A stretch of 64,000 bases of DNA from the NCBI GenBank assembly GCA_002711995.1, contig PASN01000001.1, forward strand, positions 21,018 to 85,017. Reading direction: 5' to 3'. This DNA comes from Halobacteriovoraceae bacterium (GTDB lineage: Bacteria; Bdellovibrionota; Bacteriovoracia; Bacteriovoracales; Bacteriovoracaceae). Positions 19,416-60,350 of this stretch are shown here, piece after piece. A program made the translations under genes and the position numbers. How positions within the stretch are numbered: the stretch's first letter is position 1; the number at the start of each line of letters is the position of its first letter. The notes below the pieces were generated by a model, which was given only the letters and a program-made list of their open reading frames with translations, ran no database searches and was not told the DNA's origin.

Positions 19416-22094
19416 CTAATTAAGTGTAGCTAAAAATTCGGGATCATCTTTTAAGTTCTCTATGACTTCAGGATACATTTTTTTAAGGGTGACTACTCCC
19501 AATTTTTCCACAAATGCTTTGATAACTTCTTTATCGTTTTGGAGTTCTTTGGATGCATACTCAAAGGCATAAGCCGAGAAGCTCATGGCACTTAACACAA
19601 CCTCTCTATCATTCTTTAATTCATCAGTTACAAACTCTATAGCTGTCCATTTCTTTTTAACCAAGTCCTTTATAAAGTTTTTATCCCCTCTAATTTCTTC
19701 AGAGGCATGCCTTAAAGGATATGTGTAATTCTCAGTGGCCATCAACACAATCTGTTTATCATTCCGAAGGTCTGGAGAAGCGTACTCAAACGCGCTTGGG
19801 TCATCTTCAATTGCTTTCATAACAATTTCTTTATCGTTTTGTAATTCAGGTGAAGCATACTTTAAGGCTAAACCTTGTTCTTTTATGGCCATAAGTACTA
19901 TTTTTCGATCACTTTTATATTTCTCGGCGACGTGCTCAAGTTCTCCACCAAACCGACCTAAAGCTTCGACCACCACTTCATCGTCTGATTTAAGCGCTAG
20001 ACTCACATCCTTTAATGATCCACCGTTCTTAATAGCAGTTAGAGCTATATCTTTCTGTGCTTTAAATTCTTCTGATGCAAACTCTAGCGCTTGCCCGTTA
20101 TTCTTTATCGCCGCAAGCACAACCTCCCTATCACCTTTGAGCCTTTCAGAAGCAAACTGCAGAGAACTAGCTGCGTGCTTGACCGCATCCAATACCATTT
20201 CTTTACTATCTTGAAGTTCTTTTGAGATATGTTTTAAGGAATTGCCATCTTGTCTTACGGCCATCTTTGCAACCTCCTTATCCCCTTTGAGATAGTCGGC
20301 TGCATATTCAATACTTCCACCATTGGACTTCACAGCGGTCAGCACCACTTCTCGATCACTTTTAAGCTCTTCTGAAGCAAATGAGAGCTTACTTCCATCA
20401 TTTTCTAAAACCTTCATCATGAGAGGCTTATTGCTAATGAATCGGTGGTGGGCAAACTTGAGCCCATAGCCACCTTTAGCAAGGTAGTCACCAATAGCTT
20501 TGTCCAACTCCTCAGAGAATTGCTCATTTCCGAGCACCTCAGCAAGCTCACCAGCCCTCAATTTGAAAAGATTAGTTTTAGGAGTAAACCTACTGCGCCT
20601 TGCAAGCTTAGCGTAGTACTTTGCGTTTTCATGGTGGCCAAGTTCTTTATAGACACAAGAAAGACCTGACCACATATCAGGGTTAGAGGACAGGAGCGCG
20701 GCCTTTCTAAAGTTTTCCAATGCCATCTTTTTGTCCCCACAGCTCGCGCTAATTAAGTCTGAAAAATTTCCTGAACAAGCTGGAAAGGCCTGTTCAAAAT
20801 TCTTATGAGCTTCCTCATCCACATCAATTTCATAAAACTCATCATTGGTCAGAAGCTTTCTTCCACAGGCAGTCTTATTAAAAGCTGATTGGCAAAGCTC
20901 TTTGACCTTGAATGCGAGCATGCCTATTTTATAGGTATTTAAGAAACCAGCGCCAAGAAGCTTAGAGTCTGGATCTTTTGGAAACTTTATTGCTGTTTTT
21001 TTAAGCAAGTCTTTACTGATTTTTGTGTCGAGGGAGACACCGCTTATCAATTCAAAACTCGCGAGAGCACCGGTAACTTGAGGAGCGGCACCACTTGTTC
21101 CGCCAAATAGAAGTGGCTTTCCATCATAGTCATAACTTAAGACTTTAAAGCCAGATGGAGCTGAAACGAGCACCTCTTCTGAATAGTTGCTAAAATTGGA
21201 GTAAGTGCCATCAGGACCGTGGCTTCCAACTAATATTGCTTGTCCGGCCTTCGACAACTCTTCTTTCAATGGATCAACCTTACCAGACTTATTGCCAGCG
21301 GAGGCAACATAAACTGTGCCTTGCTCCTTCTGAAGCTTAGAAACGACCTCTTTGATAGCCTCGACACCTCCCCAATCCATGGAGTGATTTATATATTTTG
21401 AACAACTGTCATCCTTGGAGCACTCCTCATAATAGTCTAAATAGTCACTGGGCCTAATCCCTTGTTTGTAGCCAAGATTTTGGTTCATGGGAATTAAGCT
21501 GGAAACCTTATCACCGGCAATTAAATTGCTAACCTGCTCTCCATGTTTGTTTAAATCAGAATCTAGAATGCCAATAAGCTCTTTTGCCCTTGTAGTGTCA
21601 ACTCCCTCTTCAACCATTCGCTTTCTTAGAAGATCAGCCCCAGTGTACTCCTGCGCCCAAAGGGGTGTAAGTCCCGCCACTTTAGGAAGTTCCTCCTTAG
21701 AGTAGACGAGTTCACAGTTTAAGTCTTTATTTAGAATTAGTTCCACACCCTGAGAGAGTGTGCTGTAAGCAGATTCAATCACAGGACGCTTGCATAAAAC
21801 TTCTTGATCAGGCTTTAATTTTTTATCAAGCTCGCAAATTTTAATTTCTTTAAAAGCTGCCTTTAAAGATTCACAGCTCTTAACTGGCGAAGCTTTGCTT
21901 TTTAGAACAAGTTTCTGCGCGTTTAAGCTCTCATAGCTTTTCACAAGTTTAAGCTCAAGCTCAGTTAGCTTTCTATTGTACTCTGGATTATCAAAAAGCT
22001 GCTTTTCCCCAAAAACGAGAATAGTATTTTCGGCCTCTGCCCTGGCATAGGAGCTTGTGATGAGGATAAATGAGATTACGAATAAAAATCGCAT
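19416..22094 (-). CDS. Secreted subtilase-like protein with C-terminal DUF4116-type repeats
   Basis: This 892-residue protein has a signal peptide (cleavage near ARAEA, residue 20). A pro-region of about 130 residues follows. The S8 core has Asp178 (IGILDSD), His184 (NKHGEQVSNLIAG), Asn268 (VASAGNKSG) and Ser334 (GGTSGAAPQVTG). Asp and His are only six residues apart, against roughly 30 or more in ordinary subtilases, yet all catalytic residues are present. Residues 390-555 are Cys-containing and TPR-like. About 325 residues then form 13 units of about 25 residues (D-[RK]-E-V-V-L-x-A-[IV]-K ... [FY]-A-S-x-x-L) matching DUF4116. The gene stands alone between the efflux operon and a carboxypeptidase. 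The repeats probably bind a protein partner or target. Confidence 0.87.
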   Translation of the reverse strand: MRFLFVISFILITSSYARAEAENTILVFGEKQLFDNPEYNRKLTELELKLVKSYESLNAQKLVLKSKASPVKSCESLKAAFKEIKICELDKKLKPDQEVLCKRPVIESAYSTLSQGVELILNKDLNCELVYSKEELPKVAGLTPLWAQEYTGADLLRKRMVEEGVDTTRAKELIGILDSDLNKHGEQVSNLIAGDKVSSLIPMNQNLGYKQGIRPSDYLDYYEECSKDDSCSKYINHSMDWGGVEAIKEVVSKLQKEQGTVYVASAGNKSGKVDPLKEELSKAGQAILVGSHGPDGTYSNFSNYSEEVLVSAPSGFKVLSYDYDGKPLLFGGTSGAAPQVTGALASFELISGVSLDTKISKDLLKKTAIKFPKDPDSKLLGAGFLNTYKIGMLAFKVKELCQSAFNKTACGRKLLTNDEFYEIDVDEEAHKNFEQAFPACSGNFSDLISASCGDKKMALENFRKAALLSSNPDMWSGLSCVYKELGHHENAKYYAKLARRSRFTPKTNLFKLRAGELAEVLGNEQFSEELDKAIGDYLAKGGYGLKFAHHRFISNKPLMMKVLENDGSKLSFASEELKSDREVVLTAVKSNGGSIEYAADYLKGDKEVAKMAVRQDGNSLKHISKELQDSKEMVLDAVKHAASSLQFASERLKGDREVVLAAIKNNGQALEFASEEFKAQKDIALTAIKNGGSLKDVSLALKSDDEVVVEALGRFGGELEHVAEKYKSDRKIVLMAIKEQGLALKYASPELQNDKEIVMKAIEDDPSAFEYASPDLRNDKQIVLMATENYTYPLRHASEEIRGDKNFIKDLVKKKWTAIEFVTDELKNDREVVLSAMSFSAYAFEYASKELQNDKEVIKAFVEKLGVVTLKKMYPEVIENLKDDPEFLATLN
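19455..20434 (-). repeat. Thirteen tandem 25-codon DUF4116-type repeats
   Basis: The repeats are seen at protein level: each unit starts D-[RK]-[ED]-[IV]-[VA]-[LM] and ends with [FY]-A-S/A-x-x-[LY]-[KQR]-[GNSD]. Unit length is 25 residues almost throughout (one is 24, the last is degenerate). Nucleotide copies have diverged, so this is an old internal duplication and not a DNA satellite. Confidence 0.85.
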
Positions 22095-22173: not shown

Positions 22174-22200
22174 CAAAAAAGGCCATCATGAGATGGCCTT
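22174..22200 (-). terminator. Intrinsic terminator of the M14 carboxypeptidase gene
   Basis: The 9-bp stem AAGGCCATC (22179-22187) and GATGGCCTT (22192-22200) has loop ATGA. Read on the minus strand it is followed by a run of T (GAACAAAAAA on the plus strand). Confidence 0.88.
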
Positions 22201-22207
22201 AGAGTCT

Positions 22208-23215
22208 TTAGTAAAGGTTTGAAATTGCGGTGACTACCGCTTCGCCTTGCTCAATTAGAGACTGCTTAGTTCTGCCTCTTCTATTTTTAAGACGAATATT
22301 TCTGATTGTTTCATGGGTTAAAGCATGAAGATTGTAGTGAGTAACAAGAACAAGTCTTGCCATTTTAGGGTGCCCGTTTGATAGATGAAAGTTTCCGTTC
22401 TGCCAAGAATCATAGATTCCTAGCTCATCGATAAACTTTTGTTGAAGATTGTAAAAGTCTTCACCTTTGTAGGATCTTTTCACTCTGTAGATAAAGTCTT
22501 CCTCAAAAGAGCCGTGCATGTCTAAAGCGATCACAACTTTTGAAAGCTTCTTAAGCATTGGCGCTAGGTGTCCATGAATTGAAACGATTTCATCTTCTCC
22601 AAGCTCTTTATCCCAAGATCTGTTAAGGTCTCTGCCATTTGCATTATATCTGCTTTTTTTCATGGCGCCATCAGGGTTCACCATTGGGTAAAGAACAAGT
22701 TGAAATTCATCGCTGAATGACTTGTCATTTATGTATTGATTTAAGAAGCCTTCAATAATCCAGTTTGCTGTCCCCTCGTCCCCGTGGTGTCTGCCAAACA
22801 TAACGATCGTTTTCTTAGTAGGATCCAGAGTCTTTGGCCCAACATAGAAAAGGTTTCTGCCTTTAAGACTTTTGCCCACAGTCTGGATTTGATAGCCAAT
22901 AGCATCTAGGCCTTCACGCTTAGTATCCAAATACTTAACCATTCTAGGATAGGTGTAGTATTCAACGTACTTTCTATTGTAGCGATCAAACGGGCCTGAC
23001 TTTTCAAAAGACTTCTCAGACTTTGGCAAAAGCTGCACATTATACCTTTGAATTGATATAGCTTTCGTTAACTTCTTGAAGCTTCCCTCTTCGGTCTGAG
23101 CATAAACATCGTACTGCTTTTGAAGCTTTGGCAGTTGAGCGCCTAAGATCGTTTTCTCATGCACGCAAACTGCATGTAGAGAAAAACTTAAAAAAAATGC
23201 AATTAATAGTTTCAT
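22208..23215 (-). CDS. Secreted zinc carboxypeptidase, peptidase family M14
   Basis: This 335-residue protein begins with a signal peptide (MKLLIAFFLSFSLHAVC). The M14 zinc site is H144-G-D-E147 in GRHHGDEG with His234 in ALDMHGS as third ligand. The substrate-binding Arg/Asn motif is GRDLNRSW (195-201) and the catalytic Glu is Glu302 in LTHET. The short catalytic domain resembles bacterial MpaA/gamma-D-glutamyl-L-diamino-acid peptidase-type M14 enzymes more than digestive carboxypeptidases, so muropeptides or peptides are both possible substrates. It would act in the periplasm or outside. It has its own intrinsic terminator and lies downstream of the pyrophosphatase terminator, so it is a single-gene unit. 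Confidence 0.9.
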   Translation of the reverse strand: MKLLIAFFLSFSLHAVCVHEKTILGAQLPKLQKQYDVYAQTEEGSFKKLTKAISIQRYNVQLLPKSEKSFEKSGPFDRYNRKYVEYYTYPRMVKYLDTKREGLDAIGYQIQTVGKSLKGRNLFYVGPKTLDPTKKTIVMFGRHHGDEGTANWIIEGFLNQYINDKSFSDEFQLVLYPMVNPDGAMKKSRYNANGRDLNRSWDKELGEDEIVSIHGHLAPMLKKLSKVVIALDMHGSFEEDFIYRVKRSYKGEDFYNLQQKFIDELGIYDSWQNGNFHLSNGHPKMARLVLVTHYNLHALTHETIRNIRLKNRRGRTKQSLIEQGEAVVTAISNLY

Positions 23216-55847: not shown

Positions 55848-58800
55848 TTACCTAATGGCCTCTTGAAGCTCTCTTTCAAGTTGTTCTCGAAGTTTGCTCA
55901 ATTCATCCGACTTCACTGCCTGCTGCTTCATGAATGATTCATAAAAACTCATTAGGTCTTCGGAGTCAGATTTAAAAGCATACTGTATATCCACAACCTC
56001 GCCTTTAAAGAATTCTTTTGGATAATCCTGGCCTGCTTCAAAATTTCTACCAGGGTAACCGGTAAGGTATCCCAAAGGCCTCAACCCTTGCAGCACTTTT
56101 TGATAGTCTTTAAAGACAGGCTTGAACTGTCTCATTAACCCGTGAGAACTTCTAGCAACTTCTTCCAGCATCATGATTTCTTGATCCGAAAGAGTTCTTA
56201 GGAACTGCTCCATTTTACTGCCGCCCTCATAGTGTCCTGCCTCAACTGCTTTTTTGAAGTCTCTAAGTTTCTGGGCAACAGAATCAATATTCTTTGCTCT
56301 TTGACCAACAACTAGGCCTTGAGCTTTCTTCATTTGGGCCCAAACTTCACCAAAGTTTGTAAAAAAGCTTGTAAGCTCTCTTACGCTTCCTGATTTGATC
56401 TTTTGCCATAGCGTTCGTGGCATATATGAAATCATAGACTCTTTAAAATGCTTTAACATCTCCGAGGGTTTTAAAGCCCCTTTTAGACGAACAGAACTTT
56501 CAAGCTTATCACTGGCCTTGGCGAAATCCTCATAATTTTGCACTCTTTGTTTTAACCTAGAGCTATGGGAATCAATTTCTTTAAGCAGCTCCCAAGGGCT
56601 ATTGCCCACGTTTAAAGATTCTGCCTTTCTAGTAATACCCATTCTTAAGGCCGTTGTGCGAATCATATTCTCAGGCACGGGCACATACTTTGGCATATAA
56701 GATTTAATTTTAATAAGGGGCTTTTTCATCTGTGCCCAACTAGCGCTCAAGAGTCCCCTATGCTCTCTCATTTGAGAAAAGCTTGGCATGCTTAGAGAGC
56801 TGGCCGGCGCTGCGGACCATCCTTTAAGCTCGGCTCCGGTGAGCCTTTTGTATGCGGCCTTGCCTACAGAACCTGTTTCGACTTTCACATGCCTATAAAG
56901 CATAGCTCCATACAAGAACTCAAGAGGCATCAGGCCTATAGTCCATGCTTTAGAGCTGCTCGATTGCTCTTTATCAGCTTTCAACATATCCCAATCCACA
57001 ACCTTTGCATTAACCTGTGAAGTGGCAAGAGATTGCTGAAACTTTAATTGAGCGGGTGTTTCAATAAAGTGTGTGTTAATCCGTGAGTACAATGAGCCCA
57101 TCATCAGAGGAAAAGACACAAAGAATTCCACGGCCAAAAAGGTGGAAGCTGCTCCAACGGCTCCACCCATAATTCCTGGTGCGGCCACTCCTCCACTTCC
57201 TATTATTAGAACAATACCCAAAGCAACCAAAGCGGCCGTTCCCAAAATGTGAAGAGAAGGTTCAAGATAGTCCTCGTTAACAGCTTCGGACTTTGAGCGA
57301 ATCATTTTTCTAATACTCTCATCAAACTTTTCGATTTTTTTGACGGTCTCTTCAGTTTGTCCATAAGGAGACTTAAGACTAGTTCTCAAATACTTTGAAG
57401 ACTTGTAGACCTTTTTAAAGTTAGGGTCATTCTTAAAGTTTAAGAAGTTGGCGTTGCAATACGTCTGCCCCTTGTTGCTTGCATTCAGTTCGGCCTTGCG
57501 AATGGTATTCTCAATCAAGTCCTTTGTTTTTTGTTCCTGAATTGCATTCTTTTTTGGTGAGTATGCGCTCAGAGCAATATTATCCAATAGTGAGATGGAT
57601 ACAGTTTCTTTATAGTCACATCTATAAGGCGTTCCAGTACCTCTTACAAAGCAGTACTTTTTCTTATTCTTTTTAAAGTCACTCTCGATTCTGAGTATTG
57701 GTGACATTTGATAGGCCTGAGTGGTTAAAGTTGTGGCGAGTATTTGCTGAGCTGTCTCGTTTGCCGCAAATGATCCAATCTCTGATGTGGTGTAGGCGTT
57801 TTCAAGCTCAAGAACTTCCAAAACTCTGAAGAAAAACTTTGTGGGGTTGTTAATTACAAGATCCTTAGGACCAAGATCACGAGCAACCTTTACATCTTCA
57901 TTTGTCTTCTTTTCTTTTTTCATGTTTTGTATAAGGTCAAAACTTTCAAAAAGACGAACTAAACTATCATTTTTATAATGGTCATTGCCTATTTTGGTTC
58001 TAATCACGCCAGGAGAAACAATCTCCAAAGGTTTGCTAATCGTGCCTAAACTCACCTTATCAGGGTTGTTTCTGAATCGATTAAGAATCGGCGTCTCTTC
58101 TTTCTCCTCAACCTCTGTGGCCCCAAAAACCTCTAGAACAGACTTTTCCGAACCTGTGAACATAGGTCCCTGGCCGATTCTGATTCTTTCTATTCTTTTC
58201 TTAAGCTCTTCATCGCTAAGTTTATAACCTTCTTTCTTTTCATCATTTTTTTGAGGCTTCATTATCATTGGCCCTTGACCAATTCTAATCCTGTTAATTC
58301 TTTTTAGAAGTTCTTCGTTGCTAAGGGCCGCTGGGGTGCCATCCTCAAATACAGGGATTGTGCCATTCTCATTACAGAGAAGAAGGTTTCTGGTTTTTGG
58401 ATTTTTAACAATAAAAGGGTACTTCTCTATTAGTTTTTTGGCCTTTTCAACTGCAACTTCTCTAAGCCCTCTCGCCCTTTCCGCCTTTGTGAAAGATTCA
58501 TCTTTTGGAAACTTCTCCTCGAAAGCTTTCTGGATTTCCTCAAAGAACAAAGACAACTCTTTTGAGAGTTCTTCATCATGCTTTAGAGTCTGATTTAAAT
58601 CTGCATAGTCCTTTTCGATAACAGATTGAAAAAGCATCATTAAGTCTTCGACAGACGTCGGTTCAAGGATCGGACTAGATTCAGCGTCAAAGGTTTTCTC
58701 CTTTATCGCATTCATAATATAGGCGGCCTGCGCCGACTCCTTGGCAACCTTTAAGGTTTCCTCAATTTTTTTAGACCTATTCGTCTGCGCAAACTTCTTG

Positions 58801-60224
58801 GTGTCCATGTAGTCATCAAGACTTTCTTCAAGCTTTGCTTTGAGTCGAGCGACATAACTTTCTTTAAGGTGTTTTTCAGCATAAGCTTCGATAACTTTCT
58901 CCGCCTCAGATATGGAGCTATCGCTCACCCATAGATAAGAGCCTAAAAATGTTTCGGCTATGGCCTCAACCTTTCTTCGGTATGCTTCTACAACGATTCG
59001 ATCTATTATATTTTCTTTGTTTAAAACACCATCTCCTCGCAGGACGATGCTAATAAAGAATGTTTCACTAAATCTTTCCCAATAGATTCTCTCTGCCTCA
59101 ATAAGGTTTGGAGAATGAAGTTGCGCCATACTCTCCAGGTCTCTTCCCGTATTCTCAACAAGCGTTCCCATCTCTGGAACTTTATTAAAGACGTACAGTT
59201 CTAGGTTTTTAGCCGAGTCCTCATTCAGAAGTAAAACTTCAGTGGAAGCTTTTGCCAGCTCCTTATGCCTTGGAAAATATTCATTAATAAAAGCATCATC
59301 TTCCAATAGCTCAACATAGGCCTTGGATTGTTGAATTGAGTTATTCTCAGGTCTAATTGAAAGAAAGTTTCCACAACTTCTTACCTCACCGTTGTCAATT
59401 GAGGCCTGACTCATTCTTTGAACACCCCAAAGGTTGGTAACCGTCTCTCTAAGTCCTAAAAAAGTTACTAGCTTTGCATAGTCCCTTGTGGTTGTTGGAG
59501 ACTGCATAGCAATGTATTCATATTGCTGTCTTTCTTGGTGAGATATTATGAACTCTATATCCTTTCCATCATTTACGTTTTTGGAGTAGAAATTTACCAA
59601 CGCAAGAATTTCCAGGCCATGGGCCTTCTTAAGAACTAGGTTTAAATACTCCAAGTTTTCGAAAGTATAGGTCTTTAAAACAAAATGATTTTCATGAGCG
59701 GCAGCACTGTAAACTCTGTATAGTCTTGCGAGCACTTCTAAATAACGCAAACCGAAGGAAGCAAAATTTGCATTTTCAGGATCGGCAGCATTAACTTCAA
59801 GCTGGCTTCTCTTGTATAGCCTGTTCTTAAACATATTCATCTTGGCCATTAGGCTTTTTATGACGTCAGTATAAAACTCTCCTGAGATTTGAAAGTCGGT
59901 GCTCATGACCCCATTTAGACCTTGTCTATCCACCATAGTCATTATTGTTTCTATCTCTTCGATATCAGAGGCCAGGCCTTCAGTTAGTTTCTTCGCAGAA
60001 ACCTCACCTCTCGACTCTGCAGCGGCCTCCATGGAACAAGTTTCATCCACTTCAAACGGGATATATCTGGCACCGTAGTTGTTTCTACAAAAATTTCCGC
60101 CCTCAGCACTGTCCATATAAGTGCATCCAAGACTTACGCCTTGCTCATAGCTCATACATGCCGCTTCGAAAGCATGAGCTGTGATTGAGAGTGTGAATGT
60201 GAGAGTTAGTAGTAGCAACTTCAT
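55848..60224 (-). CDS. Very large exported protein of unknown function with internal membrane segments
   Basis: The start is the ATG at 60224, with AAGGAC 4-5 bases upstream and signal peptide MKLLLLTLTFTLSITAHA; the in-frame ATG at 60314 adds a non-signal extension. The 1458-residue product is rich in long charged helices. A 20-residue unit (LS[ND]EEL[LK]KRI...RIRIGQGPM) occurs twice, at residues 634-653 and 669-688, with 17 of 20 identical. Near 1000-1080 two hydrophobic stretches occur (ILGTAALVALGIVLIIG and the following AAPGIMGGAVGAASTFLAVE), probably a membrane hairpin. No catalytic motif is visible and no family is known to me. It may be a secreted toxin, adhesin or envelope scaffold; this is conjecture. 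Confidence 0.85.
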   Translation of the reverse strand: MKLLLLTLTFTLSITAHAFEAACMSYEQGVSLGCTYMDSAEGGNFCRNNYGARYIPFEVDETCSMEAAAESRGEVSAKKLTEGLASDIEEIETIMTMVDRQGLNGVMSTDFQISGEFYTDVIKSLMAKMNMFKNRLYKRSQLEVNAADPENANFASFGLRYLEVLARLYRVYSAAAHENHFVLKTYTFENLEYLNLVLKKAHGLEILALVNFYSKNVNDGKDIEFIISHQERQQYEYIAMQSPTTTRDYAKLVTFLGLRETVTNLWGVQRMSQASIDNGEVRSCGNFLSIRPENNSIQQSKAYVELLEDDAFINEYFPRHKELAKASTEVLLLNEDSAKNLELYVFNKVPEMGTLVENTGRDLESMAQLHSPNLIEAERIYWERFSETFFISIVLRGDGVLNKENIIDRIVVEAYRRKVEAIAETFLGSYLWVSDSSISEAEKVIEAYAEKHLKESYVARLKAKLEESLDDYMDTKKFAQTNRSKKIEETLKVAKESAQAAYIMNAIKEKTFDAESSPILEPTSVEDLMMLFQSVIEKDYADLNQTLKHDEELSKELSLFFEEIQKAFEEKFPKDESFTKAERARGLREVAVEKAKKLIEKYPFIVKNPKTRNLLLCNENGTIPVFEDGTPAALSNEELLKRINRIRIGQGPMIMKPQKNDEKKEGYKLSDEELKKRIERIRIGQGPMFTGSEKSVLEVFGATEVEEKEETPILNRFRNNPDKVSLGTISKPLEIVSPGVIRTKIGNDHYKNDSLVRLFESFDLIQNMKKEKKTNEDVKVARDLGPKDLVINNPTKFFFRVLEVLELENAYTTSEIGSFAANETAQQILATTLTTQAYQMSPILRIESDFKKNKKKYCFVRGTGTPYRCDYKETVSISLLDNIALSAYSPKKNAIQEQKTKDLIENTIRKAELNASNKGQTYCNANFLNFKNDPNFKKVYKSSKYLRTSLKSPYGQTEETVKKIEKFDESIRKMIRSKSEAVNEDYLEPSLHILGTAALVALGIVLIIGSGGVAAPGIMGGAVGAASTFLAVEFFVSFPLMMGSLYSRINTHFIETPAQLKFQQSLATSQVNAKVVDWDMLKADKEQSSSSKAWTIGLMPLEFLYGAMLYRHVKVETGSVGKAAYKRLTGAELKGWSAAPASSLSMPSFSQMREHRGLLSASWAQMKKPLIKIKSYMPKYVPVPENMIRTTALRMGITRKAESLNVGNSPWELLKEIDSHSSRLKQRVQNYEDFAKASDKLESSVRLKGALKPSEMLKHFKESMISYMPRTLWQKIKSGSVRELTSFFTNFGEVWAQMKKAQGLVVGQRAKNIDSVAQKLRDFKKAVEAGHYEGGSKMEQFLRTLSDQEIMMLEEVARSSHGLMRQFKPVFKDYQKVLQGLRPLGYLTGYPGRNFEAGQDYPKEFFKGEVVDIQYAFKSDSEDLMSFYESFMKQQAVKSDELSKLREQLERELQEAIR
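58161..58325 (-). repeat. Two-copy 60-bp coding repeat (RIGQGPM unit)
   Basis: Copies at 58161-58220 and 58266-58325 encode the duplicated 20-residue motif, spaced by 45 bp, so the period is 35 residues. It is a within-gene duplication under coding constraint. Confidence 0.75.
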
Positions 60225-60350
60225 AATGTCCTTTTTATTTAAGACATTAAAATTGCAATGGTGATGCCAAGATTGACTCATAAAATCAAGGACTTGGAAG
60301 GCTAATATTGTCAATTTTTCTTATGTGTCGAATTTATTGACAGTCCTCTA

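What the first reader, a model, noticed from the sequence alone, without database searches (positions are those of the whole stretch)
19416..22094. Subtilase fused to 13 DUF4116-type repeats
A secreted S8-like core is followed by a TPR-like region and 13 units of about 25 residues (D-[RK]-E-V-V-L-x-A-[IV]-K ... A-S-x-x-L). DUF4116 repeats are known mostly from protist, viral and intracellular-bacterial proteins of unknown role. Their use as the tail of an exported protease is unusual and suggests a target-recognition arm, perhaps against prey components.
Basis: partly seen in the sequence, partly recalled or inferred. Interest (0 to 1): 0.6.

Follow-up and report, generated by a model that had tools for sequence, protein, structure and literature searches.

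The report
Secreted subtilase with DUF4116 solenoid tail
A relative of predatory bacteria encodes an apparently exported protein-cutting enzyme with a long coiled repeat arm, and its relatives across the same phylum carry the same enzyme core with other tails or none, which suggests the arm chooses what the enzyme acts on.

Summary
One uninterrupted ORF (19416-22094, minus strand, 892 aa) carries a signal-like N-terminus, a subtilase (S8) domain, a helical hairpin linker and 13 units of about 25 residues that match DUF4116 at E = 2.4e-117. The predicted catalytic core superposes on subtilisins (Z 25.7), and D178, H184, N268 and S334 are invariant in the 11-sequence relative alignment. The repeat tail is predicted with high confidence (pLDDT 95.7) as a regular alpha-solenoid.

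New here: the core and linker belong to a subtilase family found in 61 of 369 Bdellovibrionota genomes at E <= 1e-20. Its C-terminus varies: no tail, ankyrin, HEAT, another repeat, Cys-rich, or, once, DUF4116. The window protein also lies in a subgroup whose catalytic Asp and His are only 4-8 residues apart, against 18-72 in the rest.

DUF4116 is rare in this phylum (6 of 369 genomes) and no other case seen is fused to S8.

Most likely this is an exported protease whose solenoid docks on a protein partner. That the partner is prey is plausible, since a Bdellovibrio subtilase lyses E. coli from within, but it is not shown.

The parts
19416..22094 (-). whole gene, 892 aa, S8 subtilase with DUF4116 solenoid tail
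22035..22094 (-). signal-peptide-like N-terminus, residues about 1-20 (MRFLFVISFILITSSYARA)
   Evidence: read by eye (charged start, hydrophobic stretch, A-R-A before the likely cut); helix 2-22 in the model; no signal predictor was run
21699..22034 (-). putative propeptide, residues about 21-132
   Evidence: inferred: it precedes the point where the model aligns with residue 1 of mature subtilisins; low pLDDT; no Pfam propeptide match
20907..21698 (-). S8 subtilase catalytic domain, residues 133-396
   Evidence: Pfam S8; VIA-align Z 25.7, 232 residues, rmsd 2.4 to subtilisin
21630..21659 (-). family motif WAQEYTGADL, residues 146-155
   Evidence: W, E, Y, G, A, D and L invariant; used as the search pattern
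21561..21563 (-). catalytic Asp178
   Evidence: invariant; end of strand 174-178
21543..21545 (-). catalytic His184, with only 5 residues between it and Asp178
   Evidence: invariant; in helix 181-192; spacing
21291..21293 (-). oxyanion-hole Asn268
   Evidence: invariant; present in all rows
21093..21095 (-). catalytic Ser334 (GTSGAAP)
   Evidence: invariant; present in all rows
20475..20774 (-). helical TPR-like linker, residues about 441-540
   Evidence: TPR_8 below cut-off; pLDDT about 84-92 at 451-500; conserved in the family
19491..20462 (-). 13 DUF4116 half-units, residues 545-868
   Evidence: alpha-solenoid with mean pLDDT 95.7
19419..19490 (-). C-terminal helical cap of the solenoid, residues 869-892
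22179..22200 (-). terminator-like hairpin between the upstream M14 gene and this gene, suggesting its own transcription unit
   Evidence: 9 pairs, 5 GC, followed by a T run; the region as a whole has no more such sites than shuffles

Best explanation
This is an exported subtilisin-type serine protease of a Bdellovibrionota family. It is probably made as a zymogen (signal peptide plus a propeptide of about 110 residues) and cuts with the Asp178-His184-Ser334 triad and the Asn268 oxyanion hole. Its C-terminal arm, a conserved helical linker followed by a 13-unit DUF4116 alpha-solenoid, works as a docking surface that holds the protease on a protein partner and so sets where or on what it acts. 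In this family the arm is the exchangeable module: relatives have ankyrin, HEAT, other or no tails. Shown by computation: architecture, retained catalytic residues, predicted fold, solenoid, and variation of the tail. Inferred: export, zymogen activation, catalysis, and docking. The least certain step is that the partner belongs to prey or another organism outside the cell.
For: Continuous ORF with both domains over Pfam cut-offs. The core aligns with subtilisins over 232 residues, Z 25.7. D178, H184, N268 and S334 are invariant in 11 aligned sequences. The repeat tail is a regular solenoid, pLDDT 95.7. The same core plus linker occurs with ankyrin (L067, Ank_2 1e-27), HEAT (L206, HEAT_2 8e-51; L078, 2e-7), Cys-rich or no tails; at least 7 changes of tail state on the core tree. 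All 11 Cys lie before the tail, none in it, compatible with export. DUF4116 repeats in other Bdellovibrionota sit in proteins with SH3-like, TPR or RDD membrane domains. Precedent: the B. bacteriovorus subtilase Bd2269 is predicted to be secreted, is up 9.2-fold at prey exit and lyses E. coli from within (PMC12546842).
Against: No activity, export or binding data. No signal or propeptide predictor was run. Many subtilases have C-terminal domains that only anchor or are cleaved off (own knowledge). The fusion is known from one genome, and the two other genomes of its genus show no member of the family, so no selection on the fusion itself can be shown. Whether the host is a predator is unknown. 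The full-length model has pTM 0.50, so the placement of the arm relative to the active site is not predicted.
Confidence: 0.6

Rival explanations
1. The tail is not a recognition arm but a passive spacer, surface anchor or stability/autoinhibition element, and the protease is a general digestive enzyme like other exported Bdellovibrionota proteases.
For: Tail-less members are common, including the family f6 copies read from closed genomes, so the tail is dispensable for the family. The tails share no sequence, which fits a generic structural role. Bdellovibrio secretes many general proteases (PMC12546842).
Against: The documented tails include classical protein-binding solenoids, ankyrin and HEAT, rather than known anchors, and no LPXTG, transmembrane or sorting element is visible at the end of the window protein (inspection).
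Confidence: 0.25
2. The enzyme acts on the bacterium's own envelope or on incoming phage proteins, not on prey; the arm targets an endogenous periplasmic or surface protein, or a viral one.
For: No predation genes adjoin it: neighbours are an M14 peptidase, an efflux outer-membrane protein and RND/TetR genes. DUF4116 is common in viral contigs, so an interaction with virus-derived solenoids is conceivable.
Against: No operon link; a terminator-like hairpin separates it from the upstream gene. Patchy distribution (absent at E <= 1e-20 in the two same-genus genomes, which are 81-82% complete) argues against a conserved housekeeping target.
Confidence: 0.25
3. The protein is a pseudo-protease: the shortened Asp-His loop disables catalysis and the core is a scaffold for binding.
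For: Only 5 residues lie between Asp and His instead of about 30, and the S8 Pfam match starts at profile position 54, after the canonical Asp region.
Against: Asp, His, Asn and Ser are retained in all 10 rows with the short loop. The model ends a strand at D178 and has a helix at 181-192 that holds H184, the layout known from subtilisins. In subtilisin the missing segment includes an edge strand (own knowledge), so its loss need not disturb the triad.
Confidence: 0.12
4. The fusion is an assembly or annotation artefact.
For: Only one genome has it.
Against: The ORF is uninterrupted in the interior of a 271 kb contig, has similar base composition throughout, and the relatives L065/L040/L069 continue past the same linker into other tails.
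Confidence: 0.02

Closest known systems
Peptidase family S8 (subtilisin; Pfam PF00082)
   Same: Predicted fold (Z 25.7 to Bacillus lentus subtilisin), Asp-His-Ser order, oxyanion Asn, GTSxAxP motif
   Different: 5 residues instead of about 30 between Asp and His; helical linker and 13-unit solenoid after the core
DUF4116 repeat (Pfam PF13475)
   Same: Sequence (E 2.4e-117) and alpha-solenoid form, as modelled earlier for the family in PMC8078820
   Different: Here joined to a protease; other DUF4116 proteins seen here are stand-alone repeats or carry SH3-like, TPR or RDD domains, and some viral ones are named kinase or F-box proteins
Bdellovibrio bacteriovorus Bd2269, prey-lytic subtilase (PMC12546842)
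   Same: Subtilase with a secretion signal, in the same phylum
   Different: Clade membership not tested (its sequence was not at hand); the passages read do not mention a solenoid tail
Mosaic adhesive trimer (MAT) fibres of B. bacteriovorus (PMC10769870)
   Same: Similar logic: a protein superfamily with diversified recognition tips in a predator
   Different: Fibre-like adhesins, not related to S8 proteases

Membership tests
Peptidase S8 | Profile match over curated cut-off | tested here: met
   36.8 bits against 21.8
Peptidase S8 | Catalytic triad in the order Asp, His, Ser, plus oxyanion Asn | tested here: met
   D178, H184, N268, S334; invariant in alignments, present in the window row
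Peptidase S8 | Subtilisin fold | tested here: met
   predicted model: Z 25.7, rmsd 2.4, 232 residues
Peptidase S8 | Proteolytic activity | not testable with these tools
   needs purified protein
DUF4116 | Profile match over curated cut-off | tested here: met
   382.7 bits against 24.9, 10 stretches
DUF4116 | Tandem helical units forming an alpha-solenoid | tested here: met
   13 units, model pLDDT 95.7 with three helices per unit
Tetratricopeptide repeat | TPR profile match over cut-off in residues 441-540 | tested here: not met
   TPR_8 15.7 bits against 25.7; call it TPR-like only
Bdellovibrionota WAQExxGADL subtilases (grouped here) | Core plus linker profile match and N-terminal W-x-x-E-x-x-G-A-D-L motif | tested here: met
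   own score 2.2e-157 by construction, other relatives down to 1e-20
Exported proteins (Sec) | Cleavable signal peptide | not tested
   looks typical by eye; no predictor on hand
Bd2269-type prey-lytic subtilases | Same clade as Bd2269 | not tested
   Bd2269 sequence not at hand

The most novel reading that the evidence does not exclude
Bdellovibrionota possess a family of exported proteases with interchangeable solenoid arms: one conserved subtilase core with a family-specific linker onto which DUF4116, ankyrin, HEAT and other repeats have been attached repeatedly, giving each lineage a protease aimed at different proteins of prey or competitors. A subgroup also uses a compact catalytic core in which the Asp-His loop is deleted.
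Probability: 0.4. Interest if true: 0.65.

Novelty: new variant of a known kind. Interest (0 to 1): 0.45.

Why it matters
Predatory bacteria hold large sets of exported proteases whose targets are mostly unknown. A family with a constant cutting core and swapped repeat arms is a handle on how specificity may be set: comparing tail-less, ankyrin, HEAT and DUF4116 members would test directly whether the arm decides the target. It would also give a functional setting for a DUF4116 solenoid, a repeat abundant in giant viruses for which I found no described role.

Tried and rejected
Tandem repeats at DNA level: none found. Conserved gene neighbourhood: none found; the M14 neighbour has a strong match in only one of six relatives and the efflux neighbour is elsewhere or at a contig end. 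Foreign composition: not seen, GC 0.38-0.45 across parts. DUF4116 relatives in viral contigs with the window tail alone: none confirmed; with a small alignment, 76 loci, and no ORF carrying the repeats also showed a GTSxAxP-like motif. Solved structure for DUF4116 by sequence: none convincing, best E 0.029. Fold match of the solenoid in PDB: only weak armadillo/HEAT-like or designed-repeat matches, Z at most 6.2, which on helical repeats may mean no more than a common arrangement. Literature: DUF4116 occurs in 2 papers of the library; the one opened concerns structure modelling; no paper holds Bacteriovorax, subtilisin and protease together.

Full report
OBSERVATION. The gene is one open frame at 19416-22094 on the minus strand, 892 aa, ATG start. 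Pfam gives DUF4116 at E 2.4e-117 and Peptidase_S8 at 3.5e-9, both over their cut-offs. I count 13 half-units of 24-25 residues from residue 545 to 868; identity at lags of 25 and 50 residues is 0.29 against a shuffled maximum of 0.137. The units have diverged (31% mean protein identity, 47% DNA) and leave no tandem-repeat signal in the DNA, so the array is not a recent expansion.

STRUCTURE. AlphaFold2 on the protein with ten core relatives gives pLDDT mostly 85-98 for the protease domain, about 84-92 for a helical hairpin after it, and mostly under 60 for the N-terminal 140 residues. The core aligns with subtilisins at Z 25.7 over 232 residues, with residue 133 matching residue 1 of the mature enzymes, so the preceding segment after the signal peptide is probably a propeptide (inference; no Pfam match). 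Its best solved-structure matches are weak armadillo/HEAT and designed repeats; the strong matches are DUF4116 proteins of giant viruses.

CATALYTIC CORE. D178, H184, N268 and S334 are invariant in the 8- and 11-sequence alignments. The Asp-His spacing is unusual: 5 residues between them, where many family members have 29-30 and the rest of the set ranges from 18 to 72. Ten of 46 rows share a spacing of 4-8. Holding twelve rows together (the ten plus two Cys-tailed rows whose Asp/His could not be aligned) is not rejected and gives a slightly higher likelihood (p-AU 0.58), consistent with a single deletion. From general knowledge of subtilisin, the segment between Asp32 and His64 holds an edge strand, so the loss is structurally tolerable; activity is untested.

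FAMILY. A profile of the core plus linker finds 61 of 369 Bdellovibrionota genomes at E <= 1e-20. One pattern was scanned, so this is not exhaustive. One relative is Bacteriovorax sp. BSW11_IV, whose protein reads the same over the stretches compared as that of a genome grouped in the window's family, so the window is from a Bacteriovoracaceae-like organism. Tails by Pfam: ankyrin in L067 (1e-27), HEAT in L206 (8e-51), L078 (2e-7) and, below cut-off, L189 (9e-5); an unnamed repeat in L040/L065; Cys-rich in L192, L199 and L200; none in about twenty members, including those read from closed family-f6 genomes. The core tree needs at least 7 changes of tail state. Many deep forks are weak and several branches are long, so the order of gains and losses is not resolved. 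The two same-genus genomes show no member at this threshold, but both are only 81-82% complete.

DUF4116 DISTRIBUTION. Six of 369 phylum genomes have it. In the other five it is not seen fused to S8; it appears with an RDD membrane domain, with SH3-like and TPR domains, in a protein without another Pfam match, or as a contig-end fragment whose start is missing. Elsewhere it occurs in Mycoplasmopsis, E. coli, Fusobacterium and Alistipes records, a Fusobacterium phage and many viral contigs. The survey for S8-DUF4116 fusions outside Bdellovibrionota is limited to these collections.

FUNCTION. The best-supported reading is an exported protease whose solenoid docks on a protein. The argument is comparative: the core is kept and the arm is exchanged for other protein-binding solenoids. 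Prey as the target is plausible because a subtilase of Bdellovibrio, Bd2269, is abundant at prey exit and lyses E. coli when made inside it (PMC12546842), and because Bdellovibrio diversifies recognition tips on MAT fibres (PMC10769870). Neither shows what this protein does. The gene probably has its own transcription unit, given a terminator-like hairpin at 22179-22200.

VERDICT. Real, rare and informative mainly for the family it reveals. New variant of a known kind; interest 0.45, rising if the arms prove to set targets.

Noticed in passing
L057:2127-5006 and L056:1492-2994 (two relatives of the window's family): RDD-family membrane proteins that also carry DUF4116 repeats: a second, membrane-bound use of the repeat in Bdellovibrionota.
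   Followed up: partly
L059:3029-4408 and L058:886-2859: Proteins with hydrophobic or lipoprotein-like starts and DUF4116 repeats; L058 also has SH3_3 and TPR domains.
   Followed up: partly
L197 and L207: Two family members align Glu at the catalytic Asp position and read GTSGAQP around the serine; possible change of chemistry or misalignment.
   Followed up: no
L205 and L172 (closed genomes of family f6): Two tail-less copies of the subtilase lie in tandem.
   Followed up: no
L192, L199, L200 (family f11): Members with a Cys-rich tail instead of a solenoid; in L192 and L199 the Asp and His could not be aligned, perhaps because the frame is broken upstream.
   Followed up: no
window 55848-60314 (-): ORF of 1488 aa without any Pfam match at E 0.01.
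   Followed up: no
window 22208-23215 (-): M14-type carboxypeptidase directly upstream of the subtilase; a strong relative was found in only one of six genomes searched.
   Followed up: partly
L080 (Mycoplasmopsis cynos): A run of DUF4116 genes, two with lipoprotein-like starts, whose repeats are about 40% identical to the window's.
   Followed up: no
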